Virus record (IMG/VR): IMGVR_UViG_3300020220_000040
Location: 1 to 64,000 of that record
Source of the DNA: a virus
DNA length: 64,000 bases
Strand: one strand, 5' to 3'
Shown here: piece by piece, positions 42,979-49,951 of the stretch
Position numbering within the stretch: the first letter of the stretch is position 1
Layout of the letters: each line of letters starts with the position of its first letter
The notes under the pieces: generated by a model
What the model saw: only the letters and a program-made list of their open reading frames with translations
The model's database searches: none
Told to the model about the DNA's origin: nothing
Position numbers and translations under genes: made by a program

Positions 42979-44211
42979 ATGCCGATCCGCATCCGGGCTC
43001 GAAACTTCCAGTCGATCGAGGACGCCGAAATCGTCGTCGATCGGTTCACGGTCGTCACGGGCCCGAACAACAGCGGCAAGACCGCACTCCAACGCGCCGT
43101 CCAAGGGGTGTTCACCAACCCCTCGGGCGACGCCTTCGTGCGTCATGGGGCCGAGAAGCTGATCGTGGACATCGACTTCGGGAACGACGAGACCGTCTCG
43201 TGGGAGAAGGGTCCCAAGGTCAAGCCCAAGTACACCGTGAAGGGCAAGGCCATCCATCCTGGCCGCCAGGTGCCCGACGAAGTGCTCACCCTTGGCATCC
43301 AGCCCATCCAGGCGGGGGCCATCGCGGTGTGGCCCCAGGTGGCCCCACAGTTCACCGGACAGGTGTTCCTGCTCGACCTTCCAGGCTCGGCCATCGCTGA
43401 AGCGGTCGCCGACGTAGAGCGGGTGGGGAAGCTCACCCAGGCTCTCCGTCTCGCGGAGTCCGACAAGCGGTCTGCCTCCGCCGAGTTGAAGGTGCGGAAG
43501 AAGGACGTGGAGACCGCGAACTCCGCCTTGAGCGAGTTCGCGGGGCTGGACGCGGTGGGCGTCGTGGTGCTCTCGGTTGAACAGACCTTCGAGGACGCTC
43601 GAGCCACCCGGGTTCAGTTCGAGGCCGCCGAGAAAGCCCGCACCCGGATCCAGAACGCGACGGCCGAGGCCAACGCTCTGGCTGGGGTTCGTCTTGTTCA
43701 AGTGCCCTCTGAGGAGCTTGCCTCGAAGGCTCTCAACACGGGACGCGCCTGCACCCAGATCGAAGGTGTGAGGACACGTCTGACCAAGGCGCAGTTGCTC
43801 GTGGGGTCGCTTCAGGGGCTACGGGACGTTCGGGTCCCCCCAGCCCCCACCAAGGCCATCGAAGCACAGAGGGAACTCCGCGAGGCCCAGACCCTGCGGC
43901 AGAAAGTGTCCTCCTCCACGGCCGCCTCGAAGAAGATCGAGGCGATGAGGGCCGCCCTCGCCCAGATCAACGAGGCCAACCTCCAACAGAAGATCGACCG
44001 GGCCTCCCAGGCCAAGAAGGGGAACACCTTCCTTGAAGGGCTTCGGACGCGGATGAGTGCCGCCAAAGGTGAGATCGCTTCGCTGACCTCGACGCTGGCC
44101 GAGAAGAAGCAACTGCTCGACGCCACCGAGGTGGAGATCCGGGAAGTTCTCGGCGGGATGGGCTCTTGCCCGGTGTGCCAGACCTCCATCTCGGGTAGCC
44201 ACACACACTGA
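42979..44211 (+). CDS. Rad50/SbcC ATPase, N-terminal half ending at the zinc hook
   Basis: 410 residues. The N-terminal ABC lobe has Walker A GPNNSGKT at 28-35 and a Q-loop region. A long coiled coil then runs from about 150 to 390. The protein stops right after a CPVC hook (C397, C400). The ABC signature, Walker B and H-loop are absent here and occur in the separate gene at 49304-49951. It is a split version of phage gp46/SbcC, whose two halves should pair with the Mre11-like nuclease next door. Confidence 0.85.
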   Translation: MPIRIRARNFQSIEDAEIVVDRFTVVTGPNNSGKTALQRAVQGVFTNPSGDAFVRHGAEKLIVDIDFGNDETVSWEKGPKVKPKYTVKGKAIHPGRQVPDEVLTLGIQPIQAGAIAVWPQVAPQFTGQVFLLDLPGSAIAEAVADVERVGKLTQALRLAESDKRSASAELKVRKKDVETANSALSEFAGLDAVGVVVLSVEQTFEDARATRVQFEAAEKARTRIQNATAEANALAGVRLVQVPSEELASKALNTGRACTQIEGVRTRLTKAQLLVGSLQGLRDVRVPPAPTKAIEAQRELREAQTLRQKVSSSTAASKKIEAMRAALAQINEANLQQKIDRASQAKKGNTFLEGLRTRMSAAKGEIASLTSTLAEKKQLLDATEVEIREVLGGMGSCPVCQTSISGSHTH

Positions 44212-44219
44212 GGTCCCAC

Positions 44220-46454
44220 ATGGTCCGGCTGGTCTGGCGCACCGACGTACATCTCTCGGACACCTCTCCGGCTTCCCGGAAGGACGACTGGGCCGACACC
44301 GTGTTGGGGAAGCTCAAGCAGGTCGGCATGGTGGCCGATCGACTTCGGGCTGCGGCTGTCCTCGACGGGGGAGACTTCTTCCACGTCAAGTCGCCCGGCC
44401 GGAACACGCACGACCTCGTGCGGAGAGTGGCGGACCTCCATCAGGGGTACTCGTGCCCGGTCTACGCGAACGTGGGCAACCACGACTGCGTGTACGGGGA
44501 CTACGCCTTCCTCGACCAGCAGCCACTCGGGGTTCTGTTCGCGACAGGTGTGTTCGGCCGGTGCTACGACGACTTCGAGGTGTTCTTCGGCCCAGCCGAC
44601 ACCACGACCTCTGAAGTGCGTGCGTACCCCTTCACGAAGAAGGACGGGTGGCTGAAGGGCAACCCCTTCACCCTCCGCGACACACACCAGGTCGGGAACA
44701 TCCCAGTCGTCCGGGTGGTGGGCATTCCGTACCACGGCACGACCTACGACCACCTCCGCTTCCGCAACATCAAGAAGGGGGAGGAGGACCACCTCGTCTG
44801 CATGGCCCACGTCCTTGCGTCCGAGAAGGGCGGCACGATGTTCGAGGGCGAGGACATCATCAAGTACGCCTCCCTGGTGGACCTCGACCCGGACGTGTGG
44901 TGTTTCCTGCCCGGAACGAAACTCATCGACTGGAACGGTCGCCAGATCGACATCGAGGCGGTGTCGGAGAGCCTGGCCGTGAGTGGCCGAGCCGGTCCAG
45001 TCGTGGTCGAGAAGGTGCATCCCGCACGAGAGGTTGACGAGGACGTGGTGCTCCTCGACGTAGAGGGGGTGCCTTCTGGCCTCATCCCTGGCGTGACGGT
45101 AGAACATCCCTTCTGGGTGGCACGAGGGCTCCAGTGCCGACTACCGTCTCGGGCAGATAGGAGATGCCATCCTGACAAGCCGAGGGAAGCCTACCCGTGT
45201 CGGTCCTGCCAGGAGCCACCCGAGGCACGTCCTGAGTGGCTCGCGGCGGGCCAGATCGCGGTAGGAGACTACGTGGCCATTCCCGTCCGACCCATCCCGA
45301 CCGGTGGATCTATGTGGGAGCCCGGCCTGGCGCGGCTCCTCGGCTACTACCTCGCGGAGGGGCACGTAATCCTCAACCGCAGCGGGGACCCTATCAGTGG
45401 AGTCGGGTGGTCATTCCACTCCGATGAGACAGACCTCCACGCGGATGTGCGCCGCCTTGTGGGCGAGCACTTCGGGATCGAAACCCACGAGTATTCGTTG
45501 GAGAAGTACGGCCAGCGGTGTGTGCAGGTACGCGCCTACGGGGGGGCAGTCGCATCCTTCATGGGCGAGCACGGGGGTCGTCACGCAGAACAGAAGGAGA
45601 TGTCTTCGGCGGTGTGGAACTTGTCCGCGGCGGCTAGGTTGGAGCTGCTTGTGGGGTGGCTTTTGGGGGATGGACACGCACGCAACCCTGGGAGGTACGA
45701 CCGGGTGAAGGCTGAGGTGATGGGTGCGACGATATCCCCGAACCTCGCATCGCAGATGCACGCTATTGCTCTTTCGATCGGGCTTCGACCGTTCTACACC
45801 CTCCGGCAGGCCAGCCACGACACGGACACCCTACCGTGCCATATCCTGTCGTTCTACGGGGACGACGCCGAGATGCTCGGTGCCCGGCTTGGGGTAATGT
45901 TCCCCGAGCGGGAGAAGACCAAAGTCGCAGGGTTCTTCCGCGATGGACTCTATTGGGCTCGCGTGCGCGGTGTCGCGATGCAGCGATATCGCGGACCCGT
46001 CTATAACATCCGCACGTCCACACAGGAGTACGTTGCTGGGCTGCTTCTAACGCACAACTGCTTCGGCCACTGGCACAAGGACCAGGGGGTCACCACCTTG
46101 GGAGGCAAGACCATCGTGAACATCGGCTCGCTGACTCGAGGCTCCTTGTCCCAGGACGAGATGACTCGTCGTCCGGCATGTGCTGTCCTCACGTTCCAGC
46201 GGGCGCAGCCCGTTCAGGTCCAGGTCGTCCGGCTGAAGGTGGCTCCCCCAGAGGAGGTGTTCGACGTGGAGGGCCGTGTCCGACAGGAGACACGCTCGAT
46301 GACCATGGACGCCTTCGTGGACTCTGTGAAGCGCAAGCTCGTCACCGAGCGGGGGAAGGACATCGGTGAGATCCTCGATGGGATGCCCGACGTGCCTGAC
46401 AAGGTTCGAGAGCGGGTGCTGCTGTACCTGGAACGTGCGGAGAGTGGGTCATGA
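44220..46454 (+). CDS. SbcD/Mre11-like nuclease interrupted by an intein
   Basis: 744 codons, of which 386 are intein. The extein is a metallophosphatase: D9 and H11 in DVHLSD, D52 in GGDFFH, GNHD at 86-89, His in CMAHVLA, and the final GHWH (H617, H619) just after the intein. The mature protein of ~358 residues matches T4 gp47/SbcD size. It partners the Rad50 halves to process DNA ends. Its TGA overlaps the next ATG. Confidence 0.88.
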   Translation: MVRLVWRTDVHLSDTSPASRKDDWADTVLGKLKQVGMVADRLRAAAVLDGGDFFHVKSPGRNTHDLVRRVADLHQGYSCPVYANVGNHDCVYGDYAFLDQQPLGVLFATGVFGRCYDDFEVFFGPADTTTSEVRAYPFTKKDGWLKGNPFTLRDTHQVGNIPVVRVVGIPYHGTTYDHLRFRNIKKGEEDHLVCMAHVLASEKGGTMFEGEDIIKYASLVDLDPDVWCFLPGTKLIDWNGRQIDIEAVSESLAVSGRAGPVVVEKVHPAREVDEDVVLLDVEGVPSGLIPGVTVEHPFWVARGLQCRLPSRADRRCHPDKPREAYPCRSCQEPPEARPEWLAAGQIAVGDYVAIPVRPIPTGGSMWEPGLARLLGYYLAEGHVILNRSGDPISGVGWSFHSDETDLHADVRRLVGEHFGIETHEYSLEKYGQRCVQVRAYGGAVASFMGEHGGRHAEQKEMSSAVWNLSAAARLELLVGWLLGDGHARNPGRYDRVKAEVMGATISPNLASQMHAIALSIGLRPFYTLRQASHDTDTLPCHILSFYGDDAEMLGARLGVMFPEREKTKVAGFFRDGLYWARVRGVAMQRYRGPVYNIRTSTQEYVAGLLLTHNCFGHWHKDQGVTTLGGKTIVNIGSLTRGSLSQDEMTRRPACAVLTFQRAQPVQVQVVRLKVAPPEEVFDVEGRVRQETRSMTMDAFVDSVKRKLVTERGKDIGEILDGMPDVPDKVRERVLLYLERAESGS
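44901..46058 (+). mobile_element. Intein with LAGLIDADG endonuclease in the SbcD-like gene
   Basis: Residues 228-613. It begins with Cys (CFLPGTKLIDWNG) and ends YVAGLLLTHN before extein Cys614. Block B is visible as GVTVEHPFWVA. Two dodecapeptide motifs, LLGYYLAEG and LVGWLLGDG, mark a homing endonuclease that looks intact. The insertion point is two residues before the conserved GHxH metal motif, a typical choice of an invariant active-site codon. Confidence 0.92.
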
Positions 46455-46858
46455 AGTCCAAAGAAGAGCGGAACAAGGCCATGACCGAGATGTTCGCCAA
46501 GACCTACGGGGGCCCCGCCGTGCGACAGCCCAAGAACGCCCCTGTCGCGGGCAGGGCCATGTCGATGGGGGCCACCATCCCCGGGTCCACCTGTTCGTTG
46601 TGCGCCGGCCACGAACCGCACACCCACATCTCGCCCCTGATGGCGAGGGAGGGGGTGCCAGTCGAGCCCTTCCGTGTGGCGAACATCTCGCCCACGTTCC
46701 TGTACGCCACCATGGTCCCGGCCCCCCAGTGCGAGGGCTGTCACGTCGAGATGAGCCAACACGATTCGACCCACTGGGAGTGCCGCGAGGCAGCTTGCTC
46801 CGAGCGCGGGAAACCCGTACCGGCGCATCTCTCGGGGGTCTACCCCTTCGTTTCCTAG
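46451..46858 (+). CDS. Cys/His-rich hypothetical protein (135 aa)
   Basis: ATG 46451 overlaps the SbcD-like stop (ATGA). It contains two likely zinc-binding groups: CSLCAGHEPHTH and CEGCHVEMSQH...CREAAC. No family was recognised. Being translationally coupled to the Mre11-like gene, it might be an accessory to DNA-end processing. Confidence 0.7.
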   Translation: MKSKEERNKAMTEMFAKTYGGPAVRQPKNAPVAGRAMSMGATIPGSTCSLCAGHEPHTHISPLMAREGVPVEPFRVANISPTFLYATMVPAPQCEGCHVEMSQHDSTHWECREAACSERGKPVPAHLSGVYPFVS

Positions 46859-46865
46859 CTTGGCA

Positions 46866-46873
46866 GGTAGGGT
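46866..46873 (+). promoter_or_regulatory. GGTAGGGT motif upstream of Cas4-like gene
   Basis: GGTAGGGT lies 28 bases before the GTG at 46902 and ahead of a GGGAG ribosome-binding site. Confidence 0.35.
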
Positions 46874-46901
46874 GTACCCCAAACCTCTGCTGGGAGATGA
46901 C

Positions 46902-47822
46902 GTGGGCAAGGCTTTCACGCTCTACTGGAGTAGCCTCGAGACCTATGAACGCTGTCCACAGCTTTTCCTGTGGGGGCGTGGTTGGGGGACCATCGACGTG
47001 GGCGGTGGTCCGGGGAAGTCCAAGCCCAAGCCGCTGAAGGACTCCCGCCACCACGCCATCATGGGCATCGTCATCCAGAAGGTCATCGAGCGGATGTACA
47101 ACGATGAGCTTTGGCGAACCCCCGACGGTTTGCAGAAGCGACTCTTGGACATGGTCGAGAAGGAGTTCAACTACGAGGTCAGCCGCAACTTCATCGACTG
47201 GCGACAGGCTCCGTCGAAGTTCGAGATGTTGCGGACGTGCCAGGATGGGGTGAGCGGGTTCCTTCGGACGCTGAAGGCCCAGAAGCTCCTCGGTCCCTAC
47301 GCTCGAGCCGAGGTCGAACTCCTCGGGTGGGTGAACCAGTACACCCCCATCGGCGGTCGGGCGGACTTGATTCTCCGTCGGGACGACAACGGCACGACCA
47401 TCCTGGACGGGAAGAACTCCAAGGACAAGGGCAAGTACACGAACCCCGACCAGCTTCGGTGGTACGCCCTCTGCTACTACCTCGGGTACGGCAAGCTCCC
47501 CGAGCGGCTGGGCTTCCTCTACTACCGCTACCCGGCTGGGTTCGAGAACCCGGATGGGACGATCGAGACGGGGGTGGACTGGGTGCCGGCCACTCGAGCC
47601 GACATCGAGGGTCTCGCCAAGCGGGCTGTGGATGCTCGGAAGGCGATGGACAAGGAGAAGTTCGAGGCCACGCCGTCCCCCTCGACTTGCAAATTCTGCG
47701 ACTACGAGACGGTCTGCCCGGCCCGTCAAGCCCAGAAGGCCGCCAACTCCCGCTCCCGCAAGAAGGGAAAGGATGGCGAGGAGCTTGAGATCGGCGACGG
47801 TTTCGCCGAGTTGAAGATGTAG
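46902..47822 (+). CDS. Cas4/RecB-like PD-(D/E)XK nuclease with Fe-S cysteines
   Basis: 306 residues from GTG 46902; GGGAG lies 6 bases upstream, and a TTG at 46860 would run through the promoter motif. Conserved elements: Cys in TYERCPQLF, the nuclease core GGRADLILRR ... TILDGKNS (D and E/D-x-K positions), a Q-x-x-x-Y helix (DQLRWYALCYY), and a C-terminal CKFCDYETVC cluster. Together the four Cys suit a 4Fe-4S site as in Cas4 and AddB. It probably trims DNA ends in recombination; there is no CRISPR nearby. Confidence 0.85.
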   Translation: MGKAFTLYWSSLETYERCPQLFLWGRGWGTIDVGGGPGKSKPKPLKDSRHHAIMGIVIQKVIERMYNDELWRTPDGLQKRLLDMVEKEFNYEVSRNFIDWRQAPSKFEMLRTCQDGVSGFLRTLKAQKLLGPYARAEVELLGWVNQYTPIGGRADLILRRDDNGTTILDGKNSKDKGKYTNPDQLRWYALCYYLGYGKLPERLGFLYYRYPAGFENPDGTIETGVDWVPATRADIEGLAKRAVDARKAMDKEKFEATPSPSTCKFCDYETVCPARQAQKAANSRSRKKGKDGEELEIGDGFAELKM

Positions 47823-47877
47823 GGGGGGTCCAAACCTTAGGCATTCGGGTAGAGCACGGAACGGGTTCGGAGGCGAA

Positions 47878-48150
47878 GTGGACTTGGACCAACGGTTGGA
47901 GGCGGCCACCAAACGTCGAGAGACGCTTGCGGCCGAGTGCCGTCGCCTGGAAGGGAAGTTGGAAGCCGCCGAGACGGCGCTCCGAGCCGTTGAGGAGGAG
48001 TGCCGTGCCAAGAACATCGATCCCGCCAAGATCGATGAGGTAATCGAGCAACTTCGAGCCAAGTACCAGACCCTCGTGGAGCAACTAGAGCAGGACGTGG
48101 CCGCAGCGGACCGCGCCCTCACACCTTTCCTGAAGGAGACGACCGGATGA
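47878..48150 (+). CDS. Short coiled-coil protein (90 aa)
   Basis: GTG 47878 with GGAGG upstream. Nearly the whole product is one antiparallel-type coiled coil broken by NIDPAK. The stop overlaps the clamp start (ATGA). It lies between the two Rad50-like halves and could be a leftover of, or partner to, the missing part of their coiled coil; the evidence for that is only position and fold. Confidence 0.65.
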   Translation: MDLDQRLEAATKRRETLAAECRRLEGKLEAAETALRAVEEECRAKNIDPAKIDEVIEQLRAKYQTLVEQLEQDVAAADRALTPFLKETTG

Positions 48151-49307
48151 AGATCACAGCAACCAAGAAGGATCTGACTGCCGCCTACCAGATCGCTTCG
48201 CTCGGAGTGGGCAGCGGGGAGGACAGCGACATCCGGACCCATCTCTTGCTTCGCGTTCGAGACGGCAAGCTCGAGATGCTGGCGAACAACTTCGGTCGTC
48301 TCATGGCCTCCGCGTTCGTCGTGAACGCCAAGCTCACGGACGCCAACGAAGGGGACGTGTTCACAGTCCCGGCCTGGCGTTTCGCGAAGTTCATCTCGCT
48401 CATGCGTGGAGATGACGAGGAGGCGACCCTCACCCACGGGGACGGCATCACCAAGGCCGCCAGCAAGCGGGGCACGGGCAAGTGGGCCGCACTCGACCCG
48501 AGCACCTTCCGCTACACCGACAACACCTTCGCGGAAGCCACCCAGGTGGCGACGGCCAACATGGAGCGGCTGGCGAACACCCTGCTCTACAGCCGGAACT
48601 TCGTCCACGAGCAGGAGAACAAGTCTCCGAACCTCGTTCTGACCGAGTGCCGGAACGGTCTGTTCTGGGCGACGGACTCCATGTGCATCTCCATCGTGGA
48701 GAACCCCGACTGCGCCCAGTCCACGCTGCGGATCCACGGCAAGGACATCGGCACCCTCACCCCCTTCCTGTCGACCAAGGGGATCGAGACGGTCGAGTTG
48801 TTCGAGCACCCCAACATGGTGTTCTTCCGTCACCCCGGCGAGGTCGGTGGCATGGTCGGTGTCGCCCGCTGGGTCCACGAGTTCCCGGCGATGAAGATCG
48901 ACCGCGAAGAGAAGCCCAAGTGCGGGTTCACCGTCAGTGCCGAGGGGCTCAAGGAAGCCCTGGAGTTCTTCGACGCCTTCGCCCAGAAGGACGACACCCA
49001 GGTCCGCTTCCGCTTCGAGAAGGACGGCGAGGTCGTCGTGTCGATGGCCTCCGGCTCGGGGGCGAGCGAGGACGACGACCAGGTGCTCACCTTCATCGAG
49101 TCGGACAACATGTCCGCCTTCAAGGATGCGGGGTTCACCGGCTTCTCGCTCACCAAGAAGTCGGTCAGCTTCCTGGCCGACACCTTCCTCTCCGAGAAGC
49201 AGGTTCGGTTCGGTGTGACCTGGGTGAAGAAGAACGGGTACGTCACCATCAAGTACACCAAGGACCAGACCAACTACTTCACCCTCCTCCTGTGGCACCG
49301 GAAGTGA
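48147..49307 (+). CDS. DNA sliding clamp (beta/DnaN-like)
   Basis: 386 residues, the length of a three-domain bacterial beta clamp. It starts MKITATKKDLTAAYQIAS, the DnaN-style opening helix, followed by repeated beta-alpha-beta units and a final beta strand pair (YVTIKYTKDQTNYFTLLLWH). Similarity is at the pattern level. Supporting context: a bacterial-type loader (delta', delta and DnaX genes) is present in the same window. Its stop overlaps the Rad50-C gene (GTGA). Confidence 0.75.
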   Translation: MKITATKKDLTAAYQIASLGVGSGEDSDIRTHLLLRVRDGKLEMLANNFGRLMASAFVVNAKLTDANEGDVFTVPAWRFAKFISLMRGDDEEATLTHGDGITKAASKRGTGKWAALDPSTFRYTDNTFAEATQVATANMERLANTLLYSRNFVHEQENKSPNLVLTECRNGLFWATDSMCISIVENPDCAQSTLRIHGKDIGTLTPFLSTKGIETVELFEHPNMVFFRHPGEVGGMVGVARWVHEFPAMKIDREEKPKCGFTVSAEGLKEALEFFDAFAQKDDTQVRFRFEKDGEVVVSMASGSGASEDDDQVLTFIESDNMSAFKDAGFTGFSLTKKSVSFLADTFLSEKQVRFGVTWVKKNGYVTIKYTKDQTNYFTLLLWHRK

Positions 49308-49951
49308 GTCTCCCTGACCTGCCATCCGTGCAGGTCAGTTCCCTCCGCTCACGCTTGGAGCAAGCGAAGGGGCGGAGGGACGGTCTACGGGTACGCCTGA
49401 GCCAAGCACAGGCCGAGGTGAAACGGCTGGAGGCCGAGGAGGAGGTGTCGGATCTGGCTTCGGGCTTGATCCGCACCCTCATCGACTCCGAGGTGACGGA
49501 CGGCGTGAAAGCTGTCGAGGAGTTGCTGACCGAAGGCTTGCGTGCGGTGTTCGACGACCAGGACATCTCGGTGCGGGCCGACGTGGACGTGTCCCGAGGC
49601 AAGGTCAGCGTCGACCTCATCACCATCCAGAAGCAAGCGGATGGGACCGTGACCGAGGGGTTGAGTCGGGATGCCTACGGGGGTGCCGTCACCACCGTGC
49701 AGTCCGCCCTCCTGCGGGTCATCGTCACGGTGCGCCGTGGGCTTCGTCCCGTGCTGTTCCTGGACGAGACGCTGCCCGCGTTCGACTCGAACTACGTCCA
49801 CAACATGGGGGCGTTCCTCCGGGTGCTGTGTGAGCGCCTGGGGGTGGATGTCCTCCTCGTGTCCCACAACCCCGCGATGGTCGAAGCCGCAGACCACGCC
49901 TACCGCATCCAGAAGGTCAACGGGGCTGCCACGTTCAAGAGACTCCGCTAG
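49304..49951 (+). CDS. Rad50/SbcC ATPase, C-terminal half
   Basis: 215 residues from GTG 49304. It opens with a coiled coil (about 12-50), then a beta-rich ABC lobe with signature-like SRDAYGGAVTTVQ at 121-133, Walker B LFLDETLPAFD with D154/E155, and H-loop VSHN (H188). No Walker A or CxxC hook is present. It complements the gene at 42979-44211 to form a complete ATPase head. The separation of 5 kb, with the nuclease, Cas4-like and clamp genes in between, is unusual. Confidence 0.85.
   Translation: MSLPDLPSVQVSSLRSRLEQAKGRRDGLRVRLSQAQAEVKRLEAEEEVSDLASGLIRTLIDSEVTDGVKAVEELLTEGLRAVFDDQDISVRADVDVSRGKVSVDLITIQKQADGTVTEGLSRDAYGGAVTTVQSALLRVIVTVRRGLRPVLFLDETLPAFDSNYVHNMGAFLRVLCERLGVDVLLVSHNPAMVEAADHAYRIQKVNGAATFKRLR

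What the first reader, a model, noticed from the sequence alone, without database searches (positions are those of the whole stretch)
42979..49951. Rad50/SbcC ATPase split at the zinc hook into genes 5 kb apart
The first gene ends just after CPVC; the second holds only the signature, Walker B and H-loop half. Between them lie the Mre11-like nuclease, a Cas4-like nuclease, a 90-aa coiled-coil protein and the sliding clamp. T4-like phages encode one gp46 chain, so a two-chain head that must assemble in trans is unusual. The lone hook half would still pair with another through zinc.
Basis: partly seen in the sequence, partly recalled or inferred. Interest (0 to 1): 0.7.

Follow-up and report, generated by a model that had tools for sequence, protein, structure and literature searches.

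The report
Phage Rad50 encoded in split genes
A DNA-repair motor that cells and most studied phages make as one protein chain is here made in separate pieces from genes kilobases apart, with a small third coiled-coil gene nearby, and the same arrangement recurs in many other phages.

Summary
The split is real and conserved. Gene 42979-44211 (410 aa) holds Walker A, the Q-loop, a long helical arm and a CPVC zinc hook ten residues before its end. Gene 49304-49951 (215 aa) holds the signature, Walker B and H-loop half; its predicted fold best matches the C-terminal chain of Pyrococcus Rad50 (Z 14.0). The 68.5-kb record has one copy of each half and no full-length SbcC. Of 94 contig clusters of relatives, 66 hold both halves in one stretch, always split, same strand, N first. 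A distant Bacillus-type clade is split the same way. Best reading: a two-chain Rad50 head assembled in trans with the neighbouring Mre11. The Mre11 gene carries an intein at its active site. New variant of a known kind; function untested.

The parts
42979..44211 (+). Rad50 N-half, 410 aa: Walker A, Q-loop, helical arm, C-terminal zinc hook
43060..43083 (+). Walker A GPNNSGKT (residues 28-35); G28, G33, K34 in 104/104
43546..44157 (+). arm, residues 190-393: four predicted long helices, built from ~44-47-residue repeats
44167..44178 (+). zinc-hook motif CPVC (397-400), ten residues before the stop
44220..46454 (+). Mre11/SbcD-like nuclease, 744-aa ORF (358 aa without its intein)
44901..46058 (+). 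intein (residues 228-613, LAGLIDADG type) inserted before CFGHWH of the nuclease
46860..47822 (+). Cas4-like PD-(D/E)XK nuclease
47878..48150 (+). 90-aa coiled-coil protein, conserved companion, candidate third piece
48147..49307 (+). sliding clamp (context)
49304..49951 (+). Rad50 C-half, 215 aa: one long helix (8-82) then the C-lobe
49679..49684 (+). GG of the signature region (residues 126-127)
49763..49768 (+). Walker B Asp-Glu (154-155), 96/96
49865..49867 (+). H-loop His 188, 95/96

Best explanation
A Rad50/SbcC-type ATPase encoded as separate chains. Shown from sequence and predicted fold: N supplies lobe I (Walker A, Q-loop), the arm and the zinc hook; C supplies the base helix and lobe II (signature, Walker B, H-loop). 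Inferred: N and C fold together into one ABC head in trans, two such heads close on two ATPs, the neighbouring Mre11 dimer binds at the coil base, and the hook at the free end of the N arm joins two N chains through Zn2+. The complex would process DNA ends for recombination-dependent replication, as T4 gp46/gp47 does. The 90-aa coiled-coil protein is most likely a third subunit that binds the arm or the head. Whether it replaces the missing descending coil is open.
For: N profile hits Rad50 lobe structures and independently hook structures 1l8d and 6zff. C model (pLDDT 93) best matches 1f2u_B: Z 14.0, 144 of 145 residues, 2.6 A. 1f2t/1f2u are themselves Rad50 heads with N and C fragments as separate chains. 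Motifs are divided between chains and kept: G28, G33, K34 104/104, Q124 103/104, C397 and C400 103/104; G126 95/96, G127 96/96, D154 and E155 96/96, H188 95/96. A CxxC within the last 60 residues in 83 of 84 distinct complete N, 2-21 aa from the end; none in 74 C or 70 coiled-coil proteins; 27 of 27 Bacillus-clade N have it. 66 of 94 contig clusters hold both halves in one locus, all split, one strand, N first; 65 have the coiled-coil gene between. Gene distances in 45 loci: N-C r 0.64, highest of 15 gene pairs. No full-length SbcC found.
Against: No complex was modelled or tested. The N model alone is poor (pLDDT 70, pTM 0.32; low at residues 23-33, around the start of Walker A). By sequence, C scores ABC transporters above Rad50 (PotA 2e-5 against 0.0016). 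The window's signature region reads AYGGAV, not LSGGE (canonical motif recalled). N-C coupling is moderate (partial r 0.31), and two earlier versions gave N-C 0.23 and 0.02 because truncated N genes were included. Magritte's N has no hook. The halves lie on opposite strands in Tunturi_5 and in record G015.
Confidence: 0.86

Rival explanations
1. Three-piece Rad50: the 90-aa protein is the lost descending coil just after the hook, so N, the coiled-coil protein and C together rebuild one Rad50 chain.
For: Gene order N / coiled-coil / C is colinear with Rad50 in 65 of 66 clusters, in two clades with different neighbours; in Tunturi_5 a similar small protein directly follows N (E 7e-5 among three candidates). 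90 + 215 = 305 residues after the hook, against 269 in T4 gp46 and 300 in T5 D13. Magritte lacks both the hook and a detectable coiled-coil protein in its complete record.
Against: Hook position varies in ~45-residue steps (about 348, 394, 438) while the small protein stays 85-104 aa and C near 213 aa; Bacillus-clade N is longer and its small protein shorter. By sequence the small protein looks like a helix-break-helix hairpin (inference). Its gene distances track the clamp most (r 0.56; N 0.52). Coiled coils match weakly and unspecifically by nature.
Confidence: 0.35
2. The 90-aa protein is unrelated to Rad50 and serves the clamp or the Cas4-like nuclease, its neighbours.
For: Its end overlaps the clamp start here; CC-clamp is its highest distance correlation.
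Against: In the Bacillus clade it sits beside C with no clamp or Cas4 match in the fetched stretch, 27 of 27 loci, and in Tunturi_5 a similar protein sits beside N.
Confidence: 0.25
3. The two genes are joined after all, by a split intein or by trans-splicing, into one chain.
For: Inteins do occur in this module: Mre11 here, and Walker A of N in two relatives.
Against: N ends 2-21 residues after the hook in 83 of 84 and C starts at its own helix: no room for intein halves.
Confidence: 0.02
4. A decayed or recently broken SbcC gene.
For: None beyond the split itself.
Against: ATP-site residues are kept in both halves across two clades; the same split in all 66 clusters.
Confidence: 0.01

Closest known systems
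T4 gp46/gp47 and T5 D13/D12 (SbcC/SbcD-like)
   Same: ABC-ATPase with CPTC hook plus Mre11-like partner; in T4 also near the clamp gene
   Different: one chain of 560 or 612 aa, with the hook near the middle
Crystallised P. furiosus Rad50 head, PDB 1f2t/1f2u
   Same: N and C fragments as separate chains forming one head; best fold match of the C-half
   Different: made in the laboratory (recalled), no arm or hook
PHROG 16465 ('exonuclease') and PHROG 15167 ('ATPase')
   Same: the Bacillus-phage versions of N and C match them over full length; the window's halves match at 3e-19 and 1e-19
   Different: the labels do not say that they are halves of one protein
Mre11-Rad50 fusions (Mimivirus R555 and others, PMC3175470, passages read)
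   Same: rearranged chain architecture of the same complex in viruses; one Bacillus phage fusion is reported to lack one P-loop segment
   Different: fusion rather than split
Split PolIII alpha and RNA polymerase subunits of jumbo phages (PMC7824862, passages read)
   Same: a core enzyme divided into separate genes in large phages
   Different: other enzymes; the passages seen do not mention a split SbcC

Membership tests
Rad50/SbcC | Walker A lobe with Rad50/SMC similarity | tested here: met
Rad50/SbcC | signature, Walker B and H-loop lobe of Rad50/SMC fold | tested here: met
Rad50/SbcC | CxxC zinc hook at the arm tip | tested here: met
   motif; zinc binding itself not testable here
Rad50/SbcC | Mre11/SbcD partner encoded nearby | tested here: met
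Rad50/SbcC | single polypeptide | tested here: not met
   so filed as a split variant, not as an ordinary member
Rad50/SbcC | antiparallel arm with matched lengths either side of the hook | tested here: not met
   about 200 arm residues before the hook, one ~75-residue helix in C; the arm varies in length alone. Packing itself not determined
Rad50/SbcC | ATP-driven DNA-end processing | not testable with these tools
   needs protein
ABC transporter ATPase | transporter-type nucleotide-binding domain for the C-half | tested here: inconclusive
   better sequence E-value than Rad50; fold rows shown are Rad50/SMC; genes around it are DNA metabolism

The most novel reading that the evidence does not exclude
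A Rad50 made of three polypeptides: a hook-bearing arm chain that extends by self-contained ~45-residue modules, a small detachable coil that caps or completes the arm, and a separate C-lobe, so that the arm and hook could be exchanged or released independently of the ATPase half.
Probability: 0.3. Interest if true: 0.8.

Novelty: new variant of a known kind. Interest (0 to 1): 0.62.

Why it matters
Rad50 and SMC proteins are understood as single chains whose arm is an antiparallel coil returning to the head. A natural, conserved two-chain version, with an arm that grows without a return strand, gives a direct test of whether arm continuity is needed to pass signals between hook and ATPase. 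It also suggests a function for phage families annotated only as 'exonuclease', 'ATPase' and 'unknown'.

Tried and rejected
Mirror-tree: included 5'-truncated N genes and gave low N correlations; one search removed them (45 loci left). All three are told. Tunturi N as query in viral contigs: no relatives. Profile of the coiled-coil protein against T4 gp46 and T5 D13: no convincing match after the hook. tRNA scan of the window: none. Literature: no mention of a split SbcC/Rad50 found in searches (open-access library only; most subscription papers absent). Mre11 inteins: listing only, nothing seen that describes one in a phage Mre11. Bacillus phage 0305phi8-36, whose fusion is said to lack one P-loop segment, is not in the collection. 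No transporter chain is among the 50 fold rows shown; that absence proves nothing.

The split-intein, broken-gene and different-family readings were considered and set aside for the reasons given under rivals.

Full report
What is there. The first gene (42979-44211, 410 aa) begins with an ABC-ATPase lobe with Walker A GPNNSGKT at residues 28-35 and ends ten residues after CPVC. The second (49304-49951, 215 aa) starts at a GTG overlapping the clamp stop codon. Between them lie Mre11, a small Cys-rich ORF, a Cas4-like nuclease, a 90-aa coiled-coil protein and the clamp. Upstream are a RuvC-like resolvase and a UvsX/RecA-like recombinase; downstream a DnaG-like primase and a DnaX-like clamp loader.

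Are the halves one ATPase? The N profile (20 sequences) hits Rad50 lobes and, at profile positions 339-398, the Rad50 zinc-hook structures 6zff and 1l8d (E about 0.001); its single best hit is an OLD-family nuclease over 41 residues (8e-7). The C profile hits ABC transporters first (2e-5) and Rad50 C chains at 0.0016-0.0022 over a longer stretch. The AlphaFold model of C is confident (93.1; 74 sequences): one helix 8-82, then the C-lobe. Its best structural match is 1f2u_B, Z 14.0, 144 of 145 residues, 2.6 A; Foldseek's top rows are SMC and Rad50 C-lobes. The Bacillus-phage versions match PHROG 77 (SbcC) at 4.7e-7 in its N part and 6.6e-9 at its C end. ATP-site residues are divided between the chains and kept: three Walker A residues in 104 of 104, Q124 in 103, both hook cysteines in 103; G127, D154 and E155 in 96 of 96, G126 and H188 in 95 (N entries of 560 aa or more, which include the intein-bearing ones, were left out before that count). 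The names Q-loop, signature and H-loop are assigned from recalled ABC motif order.

Is a full-length SbcC elsewhere? One PF13476 match in the whole 68,540-base record, one C match. I gave thirty-one of my loci; they lie in 30 records. All 30 had a match, in frames of 315-461 aa; G004 had two; the match of the 6.4-kb record G022 lies in its clamp-loader-like ORF. In one search, 16 of 20 records had exactly one C match; the four without are 4-24 kb. All of these are metagenomic or prophage records that may be fragments.

How general? Scans of viral contigs gave relatives of N and C. Loci up to L196 and the window were merged to 94 contig clusters (L001 left out as part of the window's own record). 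In 66 both halves lie in one locus, N first on the same strand, spanning 2.3-11.1 kb from N start to C end: 52 as N-Mre11-Cas4-CC-clamp-C, 12 as N-CC-C-Mre11 (Bacillus clade), one without Mre11 and Cas4, one without a detected CC (L108, which has a 90-aa helical ORF in that place). The other 28 clusters had only part of the set in one fetched stretch, many being short contigs. In one of these records (G015) and in Tunturi_5 the halves lie on opposite strands, about 23 kb and 108 kb apart. Among cultured phages only Tunturi_5, Magritte and Bacillus vB_BboS-125 were found, besides one uncultured record. Prophage-like loci occur in Sutcliffiella, Paenibacillus, Brevibacillus and Lachnospiraceae assemblies.

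The third gene. Profiles made only from the window's clade find the coiled-coil protein in 27 of 27 Bacillus-clade loci (worst E 3e-4) and in 6 of 8 later loci; in a seventh, L206, a wider profile finds it at 0.015 in the expected place. It is present in 65 of 66 two-half clusters. In the Bacillus clade no clamp or Cas4-like match was found beside it, so clamp adjacency does not explain it there. Magritte, the one N without a hook, has no clear match in its complete record (best 0.08). Against this: its gene distances follow the clamp most, and the similarity of the Tunturi, L106 and L108 proteins is weak (in one search those rows were in the query, so their matches prove nothing).

The arm. 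N arms show internal similarity at offsets 47 and 44 (mean best segment 35.4 and 29.6, shuffles 13.4 and 13.5; 107 arms, 20 shuffles each). Hook positions cluster near 348, 394 and 438 in the main clade and 435-505 in the Bacillus clade, while the coiled-coil protein is 85-104 or 77-79 aa and C has a median of 213 or 210 aa (two main-clade values of 693 and 735 are the intein-bearing N). So the arm grows without a matching return strand. The N model shows four long helices separated by short breaks but is too uncertain to say how they pack.

How it probably works. N and C make one Rad50 head in trans. The Pyrococcus head solved as two chains shows that two such fragments can form an ABC head (1f2t/1f2u; co-expression recalled, separate chains seen). 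Two heads close on ATP on a Mre11 dimer; hooks on two N chains pair through zinc. Gene distances over 45 loci give N-C the highest raw correlation of 15 pairs (0.64; partial 0.31; N-Mre11 partial 0.40). The role in recombination-dependent replication is by analogy with T4 gp46/gp47 (established knowledge).

Known or new? The families exist in PHROGs as separate 'exonuclease', 'ATPase' and 'unknown' entries. I found no description of them as split Rad50 in the listed searches; the library is open-access only. Papers: passages of PMC7824862, PMC3175470 and PMC6375668 were read; all others were seen only in search listings.

Noticed in passing
window 44901-46058: 386-residue LAGLIDADG-type intein in the Mre11 gene, inserted directly before the CFGHWH metal motif; five intein-less relatives align across the site. 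A relative (L007/L136, one contig) has one at the same site.
   Followed up: partly
L044:2635-4755 and L073:3400-5646: inteins inside Walker A of the N-half (GPNNSGK / T and GTNNSGK / T), so inteins sit at both active sites of the Mre11-Rad50 module in this phage group.
   Followed up: partly
L029:9181-10161 (NC_048735): an unannotated Mre11-like ORF just downstream of the split Rad50 in Bacillus phage vB_BboS-125.
   Followed up: partly
L032/L033 (Microbacterium phage Magritte): split Rad50 with a hookless N and no detectable coiled-coil partner.
   Followed up: partly
window 46451-46858: small Cys/His-rich ORF between Mre11 and Cas4 with no family match.
   Followed up: no
BFVD Q0E500, H2EBV0, A0A8S5LJS8: other short viral proteins (139-175 aa) matching only the Rad50 C-lobe, in an ascovirus, a megavirus and a phage: possible further splits or fragments.
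   Followed up: no
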